Assembly (NCBI RefSeq): GCF_001056295.1
Contig: NZ_JVMD01000006.1
Location: forward strand, 124,232 to 188,231
Source of the DNA: Corynebacterium halotolerans
GTDB lineage: Bacteria > Actinomycetota > Actinomycetes > Mycobacteriales > Mycobacteriaceae
Length of the DNA: 64,000 nt
Direction: 5' to 3'
Shown: positions 31,942 through 42,883 of the stretch, one piece after another
Numbering within the stretch: the first letter of the stretch is position 1
Layout of the letters: every line of letters begins with the position of its first letter
Program-made: the position numbers and the translations under genes
Notes under the pieces: model-generated
Told to the model about the DNA's origin: nothing
Database searches by the model: none
The model's input: only the letters and a program-made list of their open reading frames with translations

Positions 31942-32646
31942 CTACAAGGTGCAGCGTCGTTTGAGCCCAAGATCTGCGACAGCGTCGATCCACGCGGCTC
32001 GATCCGGTACCGTGGGCACTCCGATTTGTGACGGCCGGGCAGTCGGTCCCATGCCAAGGAAATGCAGCTTAACGCCGATCTTCTTGGGTGCGTCGGTGCC
32101 TTCCCTCATCACGGGAATCAAGTTGATCAGATCTGCGTTGCCGACACCCAGATAGAAGGGGAAAGTGGCGGCGAACGCCTTGCGTCCCAGGTAAGTGGAG
32201 AACACCGGGTCGGATGCTGCGCGGTCAAGTTCCTCGGTGTGGCCATCCAGCGTCATGCGGACGAGGAAGTCCGCGTCGGACAGGTAAGTCCTGCGTGCGA
32301 TGACCGTCGCCCCCACGCCGGGCTTGAAGGCGATCGACTTTGCTGTTCGCACCGAAAGACCTTGAAGGATGGCAAGGCGGCGGCGGAATTCGAACTCGTC
32401 CTCTCGGGAGCCGATGGTGTGGAAGTCATCAACGATCTGGGGCCGCTTGTCTTCGCGCACAACGAATTCGATGGAGGATATCCATTCGGGCCATTCGCCG
32501 CGCCGGTGGCCCAGGGCGCCCGCCACGAGACCTCGGAGTGCGCTTTCGGTCGGGACTTCCCGCGTGTTCACGAAGTTCCCGGTGACCGCAGGCTTGGCCC
32601 ACGACTGCAACGGCCCGGCTAGCCGAAGATAGACGGAATCAGTCAT
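31942..32646 (-). CDS. cas5e: Cas5e (CasD), Cascade subunit
   Basis: A 234-residue RAMP protein that grips the 5' handle of the crRNA in type I-E Cascade. It starts MTDSVYLRLAGPLQSWAKPAVTGNF, the classic Cas5 N-terminus, and contains SALRGLVAGALGHRRG and RRTYLSDADFLV. The ATG at 32646 overlaps the cas7e stop by 8 nt; longer reading upstream is just cas7e in another frame. Last gene of the effector operon. Confidence 0.93.
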   Translation of the reverse strand: MTDSVYLRLAGPLQSWAKPAVTGNFVNTREVPTESALRGLVAGALGHRRGEWPEWISSIEFVVREDKRPQIVDDFHTIGSREDEFEFRRRLAILQGLSVRTAKSIAFKPGVGATVIARRTYLSDADFLVRMTLDGHTEELDRAASDPVFSTYLGRKAFAATFPFYLGVGNADLINLIPVMREGTDAPKKIGVKLHFLGMGPTARPSQIGVPTVPDRAAWIDAVADLGLKRRCTL

Positions 32647-33724
32647 CGTAAATCCACTCCACCACCGATTCGATGAGCTCGTTGAGCTGGACCGGATGGA
32701 GGGAACCAAACTTTTCGTCGAGCTGATCGAAAGTCCCGGCGAGGGCTTCGGTCGGGCCGAAGTTGCCGCCGTCGAAGGACCGGGCGCGGGAGTACTGCTT
32801 GGAAAGAGAGTCGATGGTCGCTGCCAGGTACCCACCGTTTTCTGTGGCGATAACGGGCGTTTCAAAGTCGTATGCCGTGCGGTAGCGTTGTTCCTCCGCT
32901 AGGACGAGGCTGGGAAGAGTGTACGGGGCCGTTCCGTGCTCCTTGCCGCGCGGCTGGCCGTAAATGACGCTGCGGATCAGTTCGGTGAGGTTTTCGCGGG
33001 ATTCTTCGTCGGCGAACGCCGACCAGCTCTCACGGAGCTGCCGCTTGTCGATAGTGACAGTCCGATAAAACACGCCACTCGTGTACTGGCTGACGCCAAG
33101 GTAGGTGGCGCCGGTCCGGTTGTCCGCTTCGTGGCGGTCGTCGATTGTGGAGAAGTAGTCGGTGTCGATGGACGCTGCGTGCGTGGTGACCGCCGGGGAA
33201 ACACTCAACGCCGCTTCAGTGTTGTTTTGGGGCGAGTTTGCGAACATGCGGCCGAAGGCGGCAATAGCGAGTGATCCCGTTTTCGTACTGTCGATGAAGT
33301 CGTTAACCTCGGCGGATTCGGCATCGGTAGCAGGTGCGATGATGTTCAGCACTGTCTGCGCGGCCGTGTTGATCTCCTCCGCCGAGAGCCACGCGGACCT
33401 GCTGGATTCACCTTCCTTCTCGGCCCCCTTGGTCAGAGCACCGACGAGCTTCTTGGCCTGCTTCAGTACCTTCTTTTCGTCGACGCCGGGGTTGAGGGCC
33501 AGGACCTTCTCGGTGATGGCCGCGTCGAGTTCGCCTGAGCGCACCGAAATGTCCCGGGAAGCGTTTTCGTAGTGTTTACGGATTCCGCGCTTGATTGCCT
33601 GGGACGAGTGTAGGGCCCGCAACACACCGCCCTGGTTGATGCGTTTCGGGGTTCCGGTGTCGTCGCGGTTCAGATTGCTGAAGGGAATCGCGGTGACGAT
33701 GTTCAGGGTCAGGTGGTTGGACAT
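32639..33724 (-). CDS. cas7e: Cas7e (CasC/Cse4), Cascade backbone
   Basis: A 361-residue protein. It starts MSNHLTLNIVTAIPFSNLNRDDTGTPKRINQGG, the conserved Cas7e N-terminus, and has the long insert with many charged residues and the C-terminal GGNFGPTEAL region. Six copies normally coat a 32-nt spacer, each kinking the guide so that every sixth base is flipped out. It lies 14 nt after the cse2 stop. Confidence 0.95.
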   Translation of the reverse strand: MSNHLTLNIVTAIPFSNLNRDDTGTPKRINQGGVLRALHSSQAIKRGIRKHYENASRDISVRSGELDAAITEKVLALNPGVDEKKVLKQAKKLVGALTKGAEKEGESSRSAWLSAEEINTAAQTVLNIIAPATDAESAEVNDFIDSTKTGSLAIAAFGRMFANSPQNNTEAALSVSPAVTTHAASIDTDYFSTIDDRHEADNRTGATYLGVSQYTSGVFYRTVTIDKRQLRESWSAFADEESRENLTELIRSVIYGQPRGKEHGTAPYTLPSLVLAEEQRYRTAYDFETPVIATENGGYLAATIDSLSKQYSRARSFDGGNFGPTEALAGTFDQLDEKFGSLHPVQLNELIESVVEWIYDD

Positions 33725-33738
33725 GGCGGTTTCGCTTT

Positions 33739-34386
33739 CTATGAGGTGGAGGCGTTCTGAGGCGACGGGGACGAAGAGATGGGGGCGGGTTCGTACGCGG
33801 AGTAGTAATCGCGAAGGATCTTTCGCCGGACGTGTTGGGAAGCTGGGCTCAGACCATTTCCCCAGCGCAAGAACATGCGGAATAGGTCGAAGTAGTCGAG
33901 AGCCGGCGCAGGTCCAGGAAGGCTCGATGCGAGCTTCATGATTCGCGTGACGTTGAGCAGCGCCTCCTCCGTGTTGAGCGTGTGGAGGAAACGTAGGCGT
34001 TGAGCGACCGCGTCGGGCAAGTCCGGGTCGGCGGTGTATGTCTCGCCACGGGCACGGGCGAGCGCGGTCGACACCAAGAAGCACCATTGGCCGAAACTAC
34101 GACGCGGGTACTCGACGGACCGCTGAAACTGCGGGATAGTGTCAAACTCGGCTGCCGCGGCAAATAATCTGATCAACGTTGTTTGCTCGTGGGCGGATGA
34201 CCCCGGATCGATATGCGGAAGGACATGGGCGTATGCGTACTGCTCGGTGTACACCGATGCGCCACGGCGCAGTGCGGCCCTGGTCCGCCGCCATGAGGAG
34301 TCGGTTCCGGTGCTGCGCCTGGCGAGTATGGCTCCGAGGCGCGATTCCCAAAGGGGCCGGGAAACATCGATGGGGTCGGGGTTCAT
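33739..34386 (-). CDS. cse2: Cse2 (CasB), Cascade small subunit
   Basis: A 215-residue helical protein, the Cse2 type I-E signature subunit, with typical WRRTRAALRRG near the N-terminus and FGQWCFLVSTALA in the middle. It holds the displaced strand of the R-loop. The ATG overlaps the cas8e stop (ATGA). The C-terminal 20 residues are Ser/Pro rich. Confidence 0.9.
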   Translation of the reverse strand: MNPDPIDVSRPLWESRLGAILARRSTGTDSSWRRTRAALRRGASVYTEQYAYAHVLPHIDPGSSAHEQTTLIRLFAAAAEFDTIPQFQRSVEYPRRSFGQWCFLVSTALARARGETYTADPDLPDAVAQRLRFLHTLNTEEALLNVTRIMKLASSLPGPAPALDYFDLFRMFLRWGNGLSPASQHVRRKILRDYYSAYEPAPISSSPSPQNASTS

Positions 34387-35987
34387 TGCGTCTCCTTGGC
34401 GATCTCGTTTTGGTTGACCACTCGGCGAATTCTGCCTTCGAGCGCCCCGCGCACAAAGGCGATGTGCGCGGGTTCCTGAAGTGAGTGGGGTGCGACGGTG
34501 TCGTCGAATGCCGTCAGAGTGGCTTCGATCGTTTTCCGCTTCAGCGACGGGGGCAATTCATAGGCGTCCAGTCTGCCGCCCGGATCGGTGATGCCCGTGT
34601 AGTGATCGCGGAGGTCGGCGATGATGTCGATGTAGACGCCCGTGATTCTTCTCCAGAATGCGGCCGATGCATCGTCCTGGCGGTCCGCCAGATCGTCTAG
34701 AACGGGGGAGGTTCCCTTCTCGGTCGATGTCTTCCGCCGAAACGATGAGCGCAGTGTGTAGTTGAGCTGCTGGATTGTGTCGGCCTGGGTCTGGATATCC
34801 GTTCGCACTTCTTCGTTGATGTCGAAGGCCCATCTGTCGGTGTCCGGCGAGAATAATTCGGATGCCCGGATGTTTGGCGAACTCGCCGTGCCGCTGATGT
34901 GGTGGCGAGCAAAAAGAACCTGGTTCTCGTCGGGCGGGCGTCCGATGACGGTGTCATTGACCCGGGCGAGTAAGGCGCTCATCTTGTTTTCAGCGGCCCA
35001 TTCGACGGCAAGGTGCGTACCGTCGACCCCTAAATCCAAGCGCTGGACCTTCAGATCACCGTTCCTATCGTGCATGTAGAGGTAAAAGGGGTCGTGCGTA
35101 TTGCGCTCGTCCCACCAGGACTTCCTGGATTCCTTCGTGGTCCCCATCTCAGATTTGAGATACCAGCTTTCTGGAATCCCTCCGGTCCGTACGCCAGTGA
35201 GCTGTGTGCCCGTCCAGTGGCAGGCGGGAGCATTGGAACTCCAGGTGGCCGCCCACAGTGGATGTGCTTGACCAGCTCGTTCGTCGAACGAAAGCGCACA
35301 GGTGCGGTCGGCCCATGCGGGAAGTCCGACACCGTCCACCCAAGACCGGGGGATCAGTGCCAGAAGTGTTTCTAGAAGCCGAGGGCCATCGAAGAAGACT
35401 TCGGTAGCGGTGAAATCGGCGCCGACAAACCGCATTGCGGGCGACCCCATCTGGCATTTGTCACCGTCGTAGGCGTTGTTGCCGGCCATCGACATGTGGT
35501 GGAAGACCGTGAGTGCAAGAAGGGCATCGGGAAGAGTGAGTTCGGGCTCGGGCTCATTCAGGAGATTCCAGTAAGCCTCCGCCTCGTCCGGAGCCATGGC
35601 AGGTGAAAGTTTCTTCACCGGGTGCTGGTTTGGCCCCAGCTTTCGGGCCCTGTCGTTCGGCCCAGAGGGGGTGAGGATAGGTCGCTGAAGGAAGGGTAAC
35701 TCGTTGTCGAACGGATCAGACGCGGAAGACAGATCCGCGATGGCGCGATCGATGGCTTCATCCGTAAAGCCGTTGGCGATCACCTCCTCCGCTCCGGCAT
35801 CGCAGTACCGAAGGGCTACGGCGGCTACCGCTGCAAGCAAGCGGAGTTGGGAAGTGACCATGTATCCGGGAGCGTTGAGGTCAAGCTTTACGCCTTTTAC
35901 GTGGGCTTTCCGGAGCATATCTCGAACACTTGAGCGACCGTGCGCTGCTCGTAGGAACGCCACATCCGTGAGGGCGTTTAGTGTCAT
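34383..35987 (-). CDS. cas8e: Cas8e (CasA/Cse1), Cascade large subunit
   Basis: A 534-residue protein that recognises the PAM and recruits Cas3. Family features are the N-terminal block (LTDVAFLRAAHGRSSVRDML), the zinc-poor central domain (GSPAMRFVGADFTATEVFFDGPRLLETLLAL) and the helical C-terminal bundle (from about residue 370). GAAGGGA precedes the ATG by 7 nt. First gene of the effector operon. Its promoter carries a target for the crRNA-like element described at 36092-36169. Confidence 0.93.
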   Translation of the reverse strand: MTLNALTDVAFLRAAHGRSSVRDMLRKAHVKGVKLDLNAPGYMVTSQLRLLAAVAAVALRYCDAGAEEVIANGFTDEAIDRAIADLSSASDPFDNELPFLQRPILTPSGPNDRARKLGPNQHPVKKLSPAMAPDEAEAYWNLLNEPEPELTLPDALLALTVFHHMSMAGNNAYDGDKCQMGSPAMRFVGADFTATEVFFDGPRLLETLLALIPRSWVDGVGLPAWADRTCALSFDERAGQAHPLWAATWSSNAPACHWTGTQLTGVRTGGIPESWYLKSEMGTTKESRKSWWDERNTHDPFYLYMHDRNGDLKVQRLDLGVDGTHLAVEWAAENKMSALLARVNDTVIGRPPDENQVLFARHHISGTASSPNIRASELFSPDTDRWAFDINEEVRTDIQTQADTIQQLNYTLRSSFRRKTSTEKGTSPVLDDLADRQDDASAAFWRRITGVYIDIIADLRDHYTGITDPGGRLDAYELPPSLKRKTIEATLTAFDDTVAPHSLQEPAHIAFVRGALEGRIRRVVNQNEIAKETQ

Positions 35988-36044
35988 TTATGAATCCCTT
36001 CCCTGGTGGGGTTGCAATCTTGAAGCTACCGGTCAAGGATGGAT

Positions 36045-36069
36045 GTCGCAACCACTGGAAACAAGTCTA
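36045..36069 (-). promoter_or_regulatory. cas8e promoter containing a pseudo-spacer target
   Basis: On the minus strand TAGACT (36069 to 36064) fits a -10 box; transcription would start near 36057, about 70 nt before cas8e. The 16 nt running from 36064 to 36049 (TTGTTTCCAGTGGTTG) match the first 16 nt of the pseudo-spacer at 36121-36140 except at position 6. The three bases on the PAM side are GAC. There is no good -35, as is common in corynebacterial promoters. Confidence 0.6.
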
Positions 36070-36091
36070 AATAAGTTGGGTTCCGAGGCAT

Positions 36092-36169
36092 CGCGATACC
36101 TCCGCTAGTGCGGAGAAGAGCCGCCAACCACTGGCAACAAGGAAATACCTCCACTAGTGCGGAGACCGG
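36092..36169 (-). ncRNA. Crypic CRISPR-like guide RNA (two degenerate repeats and a 20-nt pseudo-spacer)
   Basis: Read on the minus strand, a degenerate repeat (36169 to 36141) keeps the array repeat's 3' part exactly, GGAGGTATTTCC including the 8-nt handle GTATTTCC. A 20-nt pseudo-spacer (36140 to 36121, TTGTTGCCAGTGGTTGGCGG) follows, then a second degenerate repeat (36120 to 36092) that keeps CTCTTCTCCGC and GCGGAGGTAT. Both keep the six-pair Cas6e hairpin but with loop ACTA instead of GTGC. TATGCT (36180 to 36175) would be a -10 box with the start at the first repeat. A processed RNA would be 49 nt, 12 shorter than a normal 61-nt crRNA, two Cas7 steps fewer. Inferred role: guiding Cascade to the cas8e promoter. 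Not known to be transcribed. Confidence 0.6.
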
Positions 36170-36208
36170 GGGCCAGCATACCGTCGGAGTGTAAAAGAAA
36201 GGGTTCGA

Positions 36209-36889
36209 ATGTCCAATCCAGGGTTTCTCACCAAGGTCCCGGTCCATTCCCTCCTGTCCAGGGAGGGGTATCGACAGTCGCGCCTTGGCTGGGACATTGA
36301 TTCGCCAACGTTCCGTCACCGAGCCGTAATGGGTCTTTTTGGCCCCTTGGAGGAAGGCTCTCGGGACAAGGCTGGGATCCTGTTCCGCCTTGAGCGCGTC
36401 CCCGGCCAGGCCCCGTTTTTCCTTGTTCAGTCAGTTGTGGAGCCGGATAACGTTGAGGGCGTTGCGGGGGTGGAGGTGAGGGAGTGGACGTTTCCCGAGC
36501 TGGCGCCGGGCCGGCCAGTTTCTTTTCGTCTGGCGGTCAACGCAGTCCGGCGCCGGACGGTCCAAGAGGCTGGCAAGCGCAGGACGAAAGTGTCTTCCGT
36601 TCCATTCGACCACGATGCATCCGCAGTCGAAGCCGGGCAGACGACGGTTACGCCGTGGATCCGGGGGAAGTTGACCGGTTGTCTCGCTGACGTTCAGGTG
36701 ACCAACCACCTCCGGGACGTTCTGATGGATCCCGCCAGCGGGGGGCAACGTAAGGCGTTGCAGGTGGATACCATCGATGGCATTGGTCTTGTGAAAGACA
36801 CCGACGAGCTTAGAAACCTGGTGGAAGTCGGGATCGGCCGTGAAAAGGCCTACGGGTGTGGTCTCCTGAGCATTAGAGCGTTGCCATGA
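36209..36889 (+). CDS. cas6e: Cas6e (CasE), crRNA endoribonuclease
   Basis: A 226-residue double-ferredoxin RAMP nuclease that cuts each repeat RNA below the hairpin to leave an 8-nt 5' handle. N-terminus FLTKVPVHSLLSREGYRQSRLGWDIDSPTFRHRAVMGLF contains the candidate catalytic His. The C-terminus has the glycine-rich loop GIGREKAYGCGLLSI typical of Cas6e. AGAAAGGG precedes the ATG. In most type I-E loci cas6e sits behind cas5e; here it heads the divergent operon and overlaps cas3 by ATGA. Confidence 0.93.
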   Translation: MSNPGFLTKVPVHSLLSREGYRQSRLGWDIDSPTFRHRAVMGLFGPLEEGSRDKAGILFRLERVPGQAPFFLVQSVVEPDNVEGVAGVEVREWTFPELAPGRPVSFRLAVNAVRRRTVQEAGKRRTKVSSVPFDHDASAVEAGQTTVTPWIRGKLTGCLADVQVTNHLRDVLMDPASGGQRKALQVDTIDGIGLVKDTDELRNLVEVGIGREKAYGCGLLSIRALP

Positions 36890-39557: not shown

Positions 39558-40499
39558 ATGACTTACTCGGAAGACGCCTTGGTCTTTTCGCAGATCCCGG
39601 CGGACCATCAAGTTAGATTTGAAGATCGTGTCAGCTTTCTCTACCTGGAACACTGCAGAGTGCGGCAGGAGAAGACCGGAGTTGTCGCGATTTCCACAGA
39701 CCTAGAGGACAAGGACCACGTGGTGCGACGGCGGGTGCAAATCCCATTATCGGGAATTGCCGTTATTCAACTGGGTCCCGGTACCAGCATCTCTGCGGCC
39801 GCAATGACGTCGTGCACGCGCGCCGGCGCGACGGTGCTCATAACCGGGGGAGGTGGTACACCTGCGTATACGCGGGCCGTTTCGCTGACCAGTTCCGCGC
39901 GGTGGGCGATTGCACAGGCCCGGCTCGTGTCGTCGGAGCGGCATCAGCGCAAGGCGGCGGTCGCGTTGTATCGGCGGCAGCTGGGCATGGACGTCGATCC
40001 CGAGGAGACCAGTATCAATGTGATGCGAGGTTTGGAAGGGCGGGTTATGAAGCTCAAGTACCGGGAGGAGGCGAAAAAGTGGGGCATCCGCTCGTTCAAA
40101 CGCGACACTTCTGCGGATGACCCGGTCAATGTTGGTCTGAATCTGGCGAACGGCTTGTTATACGGCTGTGCGGCGTCGGCATGTGCATCGGTCGGAGTCA
40201 ATCCGGCGCTCGGGGTCATCCACCGCGGAGACGCGAGATCCCTGCTGTTTGACCTAGCAGATCTATACAAACCGACCGTGTCAATCCCGGCAGCCTTTGC
40301 CGGATCCAAGGAAGAGGATCCGCTTGCATTCGTCCGGCGCGAAGTTCGATCAAAAATTCATAGGCAGCAAATGCTGAAAAACATGCTGTCGGTGCTAATG
40401 GAGATCCTCGAGCCGCATCTGCCGGATCGGGACGATGACCGGTTGGTGGCGGGCCGCGGTGAAGAGGTAAACGGGCACACTCAGTATGGGAAAGGATGA
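39558..40499 (+). CDS. cas1: Cas1 integrase
   Basis: A 313-residue type I-E Cas1. Metal-binding residues are visible: Glu in MRGLEGRVMKLKYRE, His in ALGVIHRGDARSL, and Asp in LLFDLADLYKP. The N-terminal beta domain starts with DRVSFLYLEHCRV. With Cas2 it inserts new spacers next to the leader. It ends 9 nt before cas2 and 343 nt before the array, so it is part of the cas6e-cas3-cas1-cas2 operon. Confidence 0.95.
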   Translation: MTYSEDALVFSQIPADHQVRFEDRVSFLYLEHCRVRQEKTGVVAISTDLEDKDHVVRRRVQIPLSGIAVIQLGPGTSISAAAMTSCTRAGATVLITGGGGTPAYTRAVSLTSSARWAIAQARLVSSERHQRKAAVALYRRQLGMDVDPEETSINVMRGLEGRVMKLKYREEAKKWGIRSFKRDTSADDPVNVGLNLANGLLYGCAASACASVGVNPALGVIHRGDARSLLFDLADLYKPTVSIPAAFAGSKEEDPLAFVRREVRSKIHRQQMLKNMLSVLMEILEPHLPDRDDDRLVAGRGEEVNGHTQYGKG

Positions 40500-40841: not shown

Positions 40842-42883
40842 CTCTTCTCCGCGTGCGCGGAGGTATTTCCCAAACCTGCGGCCAACGCTTCATCGGCGGA
40901 GACTCTTCTCCGCGTGCGCGGAGGTATTTCCCGGTAGCCGGAACCATTGTCAGTCATCACCCGCTCTTCTCCGCGTGCGCGGAGGTATTTCCAACCACTA
41001 CGAGTTCAACCACCGCGACGAGGACTCTTCTCCGCGTGCGCGGAGGTATTTCCCTGTGGCAGGTCGCAGACAACCCGCTCGACCCCTCTTCTCCGCGTGC
41101 GCGGAGGTATTTCCCGTCGTCGTGGAGCCCGGCAGCATCATCGGCGCTCTTCTCCGCGTGCGCGGAGGTATTTCCATGATCGGAGCCGTCTTTTTCCTCG
41201 ACACGCTCTCTTCTCCGCGTGCGCGGAGGTATTTCCCCGCTCGACTCCGTCCCACTCGGGCAGTCCGTCTCTTCTCCGCGTGCGCGGAGGTATTTCCACC
41301 GACCCGATCATGTTGCCCACCAGCTGCACCTCTTCTCCGCGTGCGCGGAGGTATTTCCAGGTCGGAGCCGGGGCTGACGTTGATAGCCAGCTCTTCTCCG
41401 CGTGCGCGGAGGTATTTCCCTGTGCCAGCGCGTCGATGACCTCGAAGAGGTCTCTTCTCCGCGTGCGCGGAGGTATTTCCTGGACCATGTAGCGCTTGCC
41501 GGCCTTGGTCATCTCTTCTCCGCGTGCGCGGAGGTATTTCCAGGTCGGGGCCGATGCAGCGGATGTAGAGGTCCTCTTCTCCGCGTGCGCGGAGGTATTT
41601 CCGGGACCGCCGCTACCGCGAAGAAAACCGCGAACTCTTCTCCGCGTGCGCGGAGGTATTTCCGACTATGGATCCTGAAATCTGCGTACCGGCCTCTCTT
41701 CTCCGCGTGCGCGGAGGTATTTCCTCCACCACGATGATGCGCTGCTCGACCTCCCCCTCTTCTCCGCGTGCGCGGAGGTATTTCCTTCTTCGTGCGGGTG
41801 CGGAAGAGGATCTGCGCCTCTTCTCCGCGTGCGCGGAGGTATTTCCGCCCTCCTGCTCGCCCCAGACGGCCGCACAGTCTCTTCTCCGCGTGCGCGGAGG
41901 TATTTCCTCCCCCGCCGCAGTGGCATGCCCCTCGGCGACCTCTTCTCCGCGTGCGCGGAGGTATTTCCTCCCCCGCCGCAGTGGCATGCCCCTCGGCGAC
42001 CTCTTCTCCGCGTGCGCGGAGGTATTTCCTCCCCCGCCGCAGTGGCATGCCCCTCGGCGACCTCTTCTCCGCGTGCGCGGAGGTATTTCCTCCCCCGCCG
42101 CAGTGGCATGCCCCTCGGCGACCTCTTCTCCGCGTGCGCGGAGGTATTTCCTCCCCCGCCGCAGTGGCATGCCCCTCGGCGACCTCTTCTCCGCGTGCGC
42201 GGAGGTATTTCCTCCCCCGCCGCAGTGGCATGCCCCTCGGCGACCTCTTCTCCGCGTGCGCGGAGGTATTTCCCCCATTGATGCGGGACTCCACCACGAT
42301 GATGCCTCTTCTCCGCGTGCGCGGAGGTATTTCCTCCCGGAGATCGAGCGTCGAAAGCCACTCCTTCTCTTCTCCGCGTGCGCGGAGGTATTTCCCCTTT
42401 CGGGCCGTCCTGGTGCCGGATGATCGTCTCTTCTCCGCGTGCGCGGAGGTATTTCCTTGTTCGGGGTGGTGCACGCCGAGGCGAAAGACTCTTCTCCGCG
42501 TGCGCGGAGGTATTTCCCAGAAAGCCGACTACTACCGCCGAAACCAAGACTCTTCTCCGCGTGCGCGGAGGTATTTCCATCAACGGCCTAGCCGCTAAAT
42601 ACTTCCGGCGCTCTTCTCCGCGTGCGCGGAGGTATTTCCGGGGTGCGCTGGTGCGGGCTGATGGAGAACATCTCTTCTCCGCGTGCGCGGAGGTATTTCC
42701 CGGGCGAAGCGCCTACAGCTCGACCCCATGAACTCTTCTCCGCGTGCGCGGAGGTATTTCCTGTTCGTCGCTGACGACGGTGCCGCAGTTCGACTCTTCT
42801 CCGCGTGCGCGGAGGTATTTCCAAGGCCCGATGGTGCCAGATGATGGCCGAATCCTCTTCTCCGCGTGCGCGGAGGTGTTTCC
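40842..42883 (+). CRISPR. Type I-E CRISPR array, 34 repeats
   Basis: Thirty-four 29-bp repeats at an exact 61-bp period, with 33 enclosed spacers all 32 nt long. The repeat begins CTCTTCTCCGCG and ends GCGGAGGTATTTCC. It forms hairpin CTCCGC/GCGGAG and leaves the 5' handle GTATTTCC, so crRNAs read on the plus strand. The first 33 repeats are identical; the last (42855) has one A-to-G change, marking the old, leader-distal end. Six consecutive spacers (41908 to 42244) are identical. Spacers at 41725-41756 and 42274-42305 share 16 nt. The array lies directly behind cas2. Confidence 0.98.
41879..42244 (+). repeat. Six identical repeat-spacer units within the array
   Basis: Six successive 61-bp units starting at 41879, 41940, 42001, 42062, 42123 and 42184 carry the same 32-nt spacer (begins TCCCCCGCCGCAG, ends CCCCTCGGCGAC). 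This is an internal tandem duplication of one unit rather than six independent acquisitions. Confidence 0.97.

What the first reader, a model, noticed from the sequence alone, without database searches (positions are those of the whole stretch)
36045..36180. CRISPR-like guide RNA between the two cas operons appears to target the cas8e promoter (CreR/CreA-like autorepressor)
Seen directly: two degenerate copies of the array repeat lie in the divergent cas promoter region, inverted relative to the array. Both keep the six-pair Cas6e stem and share a new ACTA loop; the upstream one keeps the exact GTATTTCC handle. They enclose 20 nt, TTGTTGCCAGTGGTTGGCGG on the minus strand. The first 16 nt match 36064-36049 except at position 6. 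That site begins on the last base of a TAGACT -10 box for cas8e. Known: in type I-E Cascade every sixth guide base is flipped out and need not pair, and Cascade assembles in 6-nt steps, so 20 = 32 - 12 nt should give a smaller, mostly binding-only complex. Known too: CreA/CreR-type crRNA-like RNAs repress cas genes or a linked toxin through partial matches. Inferred: Cascade loaded with this RNA sits on the cas8e promoter and limits its own synthesis; if Cascade falls (for example by anti-CRISPR), the operon is derepressed.
Basis: partly seen in the sequence, partly recalled or inferred. Interest (0 to 1): 0.93.

Follow-up and report, generated by a model that had tools for sequence, protein, structure and literature searches.

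The report
CRISPR guide that silences own genes
Beside its CRISPR immune genes this bacterium carries a tiny CRISPR-like guide whose sequence matches the start region of those same genes, and fourteen related gene clusters carry matched pairs of their own, mostly with quite different sequences, so the immune complex likely turns down its own production.

Summary
On the minus strand (36169-36092) two degenerate array repeats enclose a 20-nt pseudo-spacer; its first 16 nt match 36064-36049 except at position 6, beside GAC. In the 3.15-Mb genome only guide and target match this well. Array spacers that match a C. xerosis phage perfectly have the PAM AAC or GAC. Related loci speak for the reading: in 15 of 22 loci with this Cas8e lineage the pseudo-spacer is the best of all handle-preceded guides against the cas8e upstream region, each time with AC before the site, although its sequence varies widely between species. 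Nineteen of 20 mismatches in positions 1-14 lie at 6 or 12, bases that type I-E Cascade flips out. One locus keeps the match over 4.2 kb after rearrangement. So this is very likely a CreR-type cas autorepressor. CreR is a known kind; this is a new, well-supported member. Neither RNA nor repression was measured.

The parts
36188..36215 (-). predicted creR promoter TGGACA-16-TACACT
   Evidence: only sigma-70-like hit of that scan on either strand of 35960-36280; shuffles give 0.1 on average. A second -10-like TATGCT lies nearer psiR1; 12 of 15 loci have a TANNNT ending 3-14 nt before psiR1 against 6.4% background (L037 offset set by hand)
36141..36169 (-). psiR1, degenerate repeat with Cas6e-type stem and exact GTATTTCC handle
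36121..36140 (-). psiS, 20-nt guide of the CreR-type RNA
36092..36120 (-). psiR2, degenerate repeat; Cas6e cleavage here would give the 3' end of a 49-nt RNA
   Evidence: fold
36065..36067 (-). GAC, PAM of the target
   Evidence: AAC or GAC beside four perfect phage protospacers of the array, AC in 15 of 15 loci
36049..36064 (-). target site, 15 of 16 matches to psiS, mismatch at position 6
36046..36051 (-). predicted cas8e -35 TTGCGA, target positions 14-19
   Evidence: best candidate, but below the threshold of the scan; a -35 starts at target position 13-18 in 9 of 15 loci (in L043 as second candidate)
36023..36028 (-). predicted cas8e -10 TAGCTT
   Evidence: below the threshold
34383..35987 (-). 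cas8e, first gene of the Cascade operon
   Evidence: Pfam PF09481 Cse1, E 1.8e-8; no NCBIfam hit
33739..34386 (-). cas11 (cse2)
   Evidence: TIGR02548
32639..33727 (-). cas7e
   Evidence: TIGR01869, 176.4 bits, just under its cut-off of 178.05; start chosen by me
31942..32700 (-). cas5e
   Evidence: TIGR01868; start chosen by me
36209..36889 (+). cas6e, divergent gene group with cas3, cas1, cas2
   Evidence: TIGR01907
36886..39528 (+). cas3
39558..40499 (+). cas1e
   Evidence: TIGR03638
40509..40823 (+). cas2e
   Evidence: TIGR01873
40842..42883 (+). CRISPR array, 29-nt repeats and 32-nt spacers
   Evidence: spacers 3-6 match phage Lederberg perfectly

Best explanation
The element at 36169-36092 is a two-repeat mini-CRISPR of the CreR kind whose predicted RNA would load Cascade and, by pairing up to 15 of 16 bases beside a GAC that is also a PAM of the array's phage targets, would likely block the cas8e promoter so that Cascade limits its own synthesis. 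Shown: the repeats, the guide, the unique match, the PAM and the joint change of guide and target across species. Inferred: transcription from 36215-36188, cutting by Cas6e to a 49-nt RNA, assembly with Cascade, and occlusion of the -35 region. Position 6 is flipped out in I-E Cascade, so the single mismatch should cost little. Pairing that stops at position 16 here, and at 14-18 in the relatives, would keep Cas3 from cutting the chromosome. When Cascade is drawn off by many crRNAs or by an anti-CRISPR, the operon would be derepressed. The guide has the same sense as the cas8e mRNA, so it can pair with the template strand of the DNA but not with that mRNA, which points to Cascade and not to a classical antisense RNA.
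For: Exact anatomy. Unique site in the genome. Of 39 handle-preceded guides in the window psiS scores 15 of 16 upstream of cas8e, the next 11. psiS ranks first in 15 of 22 loci, with AC before the site in 15 of 15 although the PAM was not used for choosing. Matches of 15 loci by position: 1-5, 7, 9-11, 13, 14 all 15; position 8 14; 15 13; 6 3; 12 8; then 6, 9, 5, 5, 2 at 16-20. 19 of 20 mismatches in positions 1-14 at 6 or 12, binomial p 1.5e-15; 18 of 19 without L039 and L052. L038 against L039: core changes at positions 7 and 10 occur in guide and target alike, the change at 12 in the target only. L041: 14 of 16 kept across 4.2 kb after rearrangement. Array spacers 3-6 match a phage perfectly with PAMs AAC, AAC, GAC, AAC. 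A candidate -35 starts at target position 13-18 in 9 of 15 loci (second candidate in L043), a candidate -10 at position 4 in two more.
Against: No RNA or reporter data. In 7 of 22 loci no such match was found (L042, L049, L050, L055, L056, L057, L058), so the element is dispensable. In E. coli partial-R-loop binding of Cascade left transcription unchanged, promoter repression drops with 6 PAM-distal mismatches, and position 6 does contribute somewhat to binding (PMC5904413, passages). The proposed cas8e promoter is weak and is not reported by the consensus scan; the promoter is unclear in 4 of 15 loci (L038, L039, L041, L054). The psiR1 hairpin itself scores as terminator-like. L044 and L045 match weakly (39 and 20 of 4000 shuffles as good). 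The free psiS folds into its own hairpin. The handle motif was drawn up after I had read most of these loci.
Confidence: 0.86

Rival explanations
1. A dead remnant of a mini-array or of an ectopic repeat insertion; the match to the promoter is left over from its origin and does nothing.
For: The repeats are degenerate; some loci lack it, C. silvaticum apparently through loss of one repeat-spacer unit.
Against: Guide and target change together between species; mismatches in positions 1-14 fall almost only at 6 and 12, while matches beyond position 17 are near chance. A remnant would decay evenly.
Confidence: 0.04
2. A CreA-type antitoxin: the target promoter drives a small toxin (creT) in the leader of cas8e and the guide keeps it silent.
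For: Same anatomy as CreTA; a type I-E CreTA was reported in Citrobacter rodentium (PMC12055562, passages).
Against: The target starts 77 nt before the cas8e ATG and the predicted -10 ends about 35 nt before it, which leaves little room for a toxin unit; the next gene is cas8e. Small ORFs there were not screened.
Confidence: 0.05
3. The guide RNA binds Cascade and the site but represses nothing that matters, because a 15-bp R-loop is too short-lived to compete with RNA polymerase.
For: [quoted passage not shown] coli was transcriptionally inert (PMC5904413, passages).
Against: The match has been kept near the start of cas8e in 15 loci, in 11 of them over or within 2 nt of a candidate -35 or -10; with a 20-nt guide, 16 positions are most of the possible R-loop.
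Confidence: 0.05

Closest known systems
CreR, cas-regulating crRNA-like RNAs (Liu et al. 2023, Cell Host Microbe, pmid 37659410)
   Same: CRISPR-like RNA gene with limited complementarity to a cas promoter, generally without a toxin; reported for types I-B, I-E and V-A according to a passage in PMC13131331, and described in passages of PMC12737573. The paper itself is not held and was not read.
   Different: Here in an actinobacterial I-E lineage with divergent operons; whether that paper lists Corynebacterium could not be checked. The target lies before the Cascade operon only, cas6e-cas3-cas1-cas2 starts on the other side; in one relative guide and target stand 4.2 kb apart.
CreTA toxin-antitoxin RNA pairs (PMC9458426, first of five parts read; PMC8501985, passages)
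   Same: psiR-psiS-psiR, seed match with a PAM; H. hubeiense CreA pairs 1-5 and 7-11 with position 6 skipped (PMC8501985, passage).
   Different: Target drives a toxic RNA there, cas8e here; type I-B there.
Type I-E CreTA of Citrobacter rodentium (PMC12055562, passages)
   Same: Type I-E, spacer-like guide in a gap between cas genes, PAM beside the target.
   Different: Guards a toxin ORF between cas3 and casA.
scaRNA of Francisella novicida and SpyCas9 autorepression (passages in PMC9458426 and PMC13131331)
   Same: CRISPR effector used as a transcriptional repressor; for scaRNA through a short complementary stretch.
   Different: Cas9, not Cascade.

Membership tests
CreR | crRNA-like gene with degenerate repeats around a spacer-like guide, outside the array | tested here: met
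[quoted passage not shown]
   the promoter itself is predicted
CreR | no linked toxin gene | tested here: inconclusive
   next gene after the target is cas8e, 77 nt away; small ORFs not screened
CreR | RNA is made, processed by Cas6 and bound by Cascade | not testable with these tools
   promoter predicted only
CreR | represses the cas promoter; relieved by excess crRNA or anti-CRISPR | not testable with these tools
   needs a reporter
CreTA | guide represses a toxic RNA or small ORF | tested here: inconclusive
   the gene after the target is cas8e, 77 nt away; no search for a tiny toxin was made
canonical CRISPR array | near-identical repeats with 32-nt spacers matching foreign DNA | tested here: not met
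   7-8 of 29 repeat letters differ, guide 20 nt, matched site is in the own cas gap

The most novel reading that the evidence does not exclude
Actinobacterial type I-E systems commonly keep a self-target with a fully functional PAM at their own cas promoter, and what makes this safe is a cap on pairing (about 14-18 nt with 6 and 12 set free), not the PAM, the guide length (15-32 nt) or the place of the gene. The rule would hold in two separate I-E lineages of Corynebacterium with different repeats and PAMs, with cas8e or cas3 as target, and even for two independent guides in one genome.
Probability: 0.4. Interest if true: 0.7.

Novelty: new member of a known kind. Interest (0 to 1): 0.57.

Why it matters
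Guide and target at a cas promoter form a natural mutational experiment: a dozen species have solved the same pairing problem, mostly with unrelated sequences. From genomes alone this shows which bases of a Cascade guide have been kept paired (1-5, 7-11, 13-14) and which have not (6, less so 12), and roughly where pairing ends where the cell must bind but not cut its own DNA. If the reading is right it extends autorepression by Cascade to Corynebacterium and other actinobacteria, gives ready test loci, and offers a sequence rule for finding such switches and for building type I-E gene silencers.

Tried and rejected
Considered and rejected: TAGACT as -10 (outscored; neither is strong); antisense pairing with cas8e mRNA (psiS is same-sense). 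For C. silvaticum (L056) and L042 I looked for a guide also by reading the gap and, for L042, by comparing the array repeat with the whole 18-kb stretch: none found. L046 and L047 were dropped from the 22-locus count because their contigs have the lengths of those of L039 and L038 and the same guide and target. A class-wide sample of 394 genomes gave only the window and two weak Cas8e matches. A first, too lax search of standard-layout loci gave mostly chance candidates; it was repeated more strictly. The array of L038 found no convincing phage match, so the PAM rests on the window's array alone. No search of the large protein database and no structure prediction was made. Literature: searches (listings; searches show 20 of 1398 and 40 of 1422 papers) showed among the listed papers none on CreR in Corynebacterium. 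Passages were read of PMC12737573, PMC13131331, PMC12948488, PMC12055562, PMC8501985, PMC12231136, PMC7296934, PMC10989794 and PMC5904413, and the first of five parts of PMC9458426.

Full report
WHAT IS THERE. The window lies in a 3.15-Mb genome (G000, 37 contigs). Two genomes of its genus have contigs of the same lengths as named Corynebacterium records, and array spacers match phages whose host is given as C. xerosis. The window holds a type I-E locus: cas8e-cas11-cas7-cas5 on the minus strand, cas6e-cas3-cas1-cas2 and an array of 33 spacers on the plus strand. In the 221-nt gap between the two start codons, read on the minus strand, stand psiR1 (36169-36141), psiS (36140-36121, 20 nt) and psiR2 (36120-36092). 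psiR1 has the exact handle GTATTTCC. The site 36064-36049 matches psiS 1-16 except at 6 and is preceded by GAC.

IS IT CHANCE. The pattern TTGTTNCCAGTGGTTG occurs twice in the genome without mismatch: guide and target. Shuffled guides never reach 15 of 16 in 4000 trials. The genome-wide expectation for 15 fixed letters is 0.006 (uniform letters).

PAM. Of 33 array spacers (28 distinct) eight match phage Lederberg at 24 or more of 32 positions. Four are perfect (spacers 3-6; AAC, AAC, GAC, AAC), two differ at one base (9 and 10; CAC, AAC), two are weaker (7, GAC; 8, AAG). So NAC is the likely PAM of this system, and the self-target carries it. TAC, seen in three relatives' self-targets, was not among these protospacers.

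RELATED LOCI. A genus search with cas6e led me to ten further loci, whose surroundings were fetched. A genus search with a Cas8e alignment (A1) then found 12 genomes of 242 at E below 1e-190, the window's and those ten among them, and one weak match. The twelfth, G148, has the same gap as C. silvaticum L056. A scan of public genomes gave 13 named loci, among them Rothia, Actinotignum, Arcanobacterium and Trueperella; it used two peptide patterns and is not exhaustive. For 22 loci (two duplicates left out) I took every 20-mer after a handle-like motif, array spacers included, and scored it against the 230 nt upstream of cas8e over positions 1-16, all positions alike, PAM ignored. The motif was written after I had read most of these loci, so it is fitted to them; the match to the promoter is not. 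In 15 loci a guide after a degenerate repeat is first with 12-16 matches, the next best having 8-12; the two bases before the site are AC in all 15. In seven loci (L042, L049, L050, L055, L056, L057, L058) no such guide was found. Among the 12 corynebacterial loci it is 10.

THE PATTERN OF PAIRING. Matches of 15 by position: 1-5: 15 each; 6: 3; 7: 15; 8: 14; 9-11: 15; 12: 8; 13-14: 15; 15: 13; 16: 6; 17: 9; 18: 5; 19: 5; 20: 2. Of 20 mismatches in positions 1-14, 19 are at 6 or 12 (p 1.5e-15; 18 of 19 without L039 and L052). [quoted passage not shown] coli (PMC5904413, passages). Guides against foreign promoters give 8-12, except between near relatives (L038/L039, L051/L052) and one 14 (L037 on L039), which I take as chance. 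L044 and L045 are the weakest own matches (39 and 20 of 4000 shuffles as good). L038 and L039 differ at core positions 7 and 10 in both partners alike.

NATURAL EXPERIMENTS. In L041 the genes are rearranged; the guide stands beside cas6e, the target before cas8e 4.2 kb away, and 14 of 16 bases match. In C. silvaticum one repeat-spacer unit is missing where its relative L044 has psiR1 and psiS, and position 2 of the former target differs. This is one case, not a test.

PROMOTERS. A simple consensus score of mine puts the window's cas8e promoter at TTGCGA (36051-36046) and TAGCTT (36028-36023); it is below the threshold of the standard scan. A -35 candidate starts at target position 13-18 in nine loci (in L043 it is the second candidate; in L040 and L053 it starts at 18, just past the scored target); in L044 and L045 the -10 starts at target position 4; four loci are unclear. 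The creR promoter is predicted at 36215-36188; 12 of 15 loci have a TANNNT ending 3-14 nt before psiR1 (background 6.4%). The psiR1 hairpin also scores as terminator-like.

LENGTH. Guides are 19-21 nt in Corynebacterium (for L045 and L041 the script gave 33 and 21; by eye both are 20) and 20 in Trueperella, but 32 in Rothia, 27 in Actinotignum and 15 in Arcanobacterium. Pairing ends between 14 and 18 in all 15 (only 20 positions were scored). So the cap on pairing, not the length of the guide, is shared. This also fits the report that I-E Cascade with shortened spacers can still lead to cutting (PMC7296934, passage), and the finding in type I-B that spacers of 20-24 nt repress, with interference and primed adaptation gone at 24 (PMC10989794, passages).

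A SECOND LINEAGE. I fetched 20 other corynebacterial I-E loci with more distant Cas6e (of 71 genomes with a match); 17 have a recognisable array. Nine show a psiR-psiS-psiR whose guide has a site near the start of cas3 (five) or cas8e (four); gene identities by NCBIfam. The three bases before the site are AAN in eight of nine. Position 12 matches in 3 of 9, position 6 in 7 of 9, positions 1-5 in all. These nine were picked from a list by inspection, so the counts are biased; shuffles reach the observed score in 0 to 79 of 3000. G082 has both lineages, each with its own guide (L040, L080).

HOW IT LIKELY WORKS. Predicted: creR is transcribed from its own promoter, cut by Cas6e in both repeats, and bound by Cascade. 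Cascade finds GAC and pairs with the template strand up to the cas8e -35, shutting out RNA polymerase. Pairing ends too early for Cas3. When Cascade falls, the operon opens again. None of this was measured.

WHAT SPEAKS AGAINST. Partial binding was inert in E. coli (PMC5904413, passages). The free guide folds on itself (-18.8 kcal/mol for the 49-nt RNA). Seven loci do without it. The promoter of cas8e is only weakly recognisable.

PLACE AMONG KNOWN THINGS. CreR RNAs of types I-B, I-E and V-A have been described (Liu et al. 2023; known to me from a passage in PMC13131331, passages of PMC12737573 and recall; not read). The element meets the sequence features of that kind. It is a new member, with strong comparative support.

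Noticed in passing
L075, L078, L080, L081, L085, L086, L088, L089, L094: CreR-like elements with sites near the start of cas3 or cas8e in 9 of 20 fetched Corynebacterium I-E loci of another lineage, with other repeats and mostly AAN before the site. In L086 and L094 guide and target stand about 3 kb apart.
   Followed up: partly
L040 and L080 (both genome G082): One genome carries two type I-E systems of different lineages, each with its own guide and cas-promoter target.
   Followed up: partly
41908-42244: The same spacer stands six times in a row in the array (33 spacers, 28 distinct).
   Followed up: no
40993-41451 and L059: Spacers 3-10 of the array all match one phage, Corynebacterium phage Lederberg, at 24 or more of 32 positions, four of them perfectly.
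   Followed up: partly
L056 / L069 upstream of cas8e: C. silvaticum seems to have lost psiR1 and psiS by loss of one repeat-spacer unit; the old target differs from its relative L044 at position 2.
   Followed up: partly
L049:5990-6160: Actinotignum timonense has a second psiR-psiS-psiR with a site beside GAC (read by eye) about 4 kb before its cas8e, while the guide at the main gap does not match.
   Followed up: partly
L058:9819 and 9998: Mobiluncus mulieris: 15 nt AGAATGGCTATCAAC stand both before psiR1 and at the cas8e start codon; no CreR-type match was found there.
   Followed up: no
L037 (genome G014): cas8e has an in-frame TAG and the cas7 frame is short, yet guide and target still match.
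   Followed up: no
genome G070: The other genome of the same species has no match to cas6e or to this Cas8e lineage.
   Followed up: no
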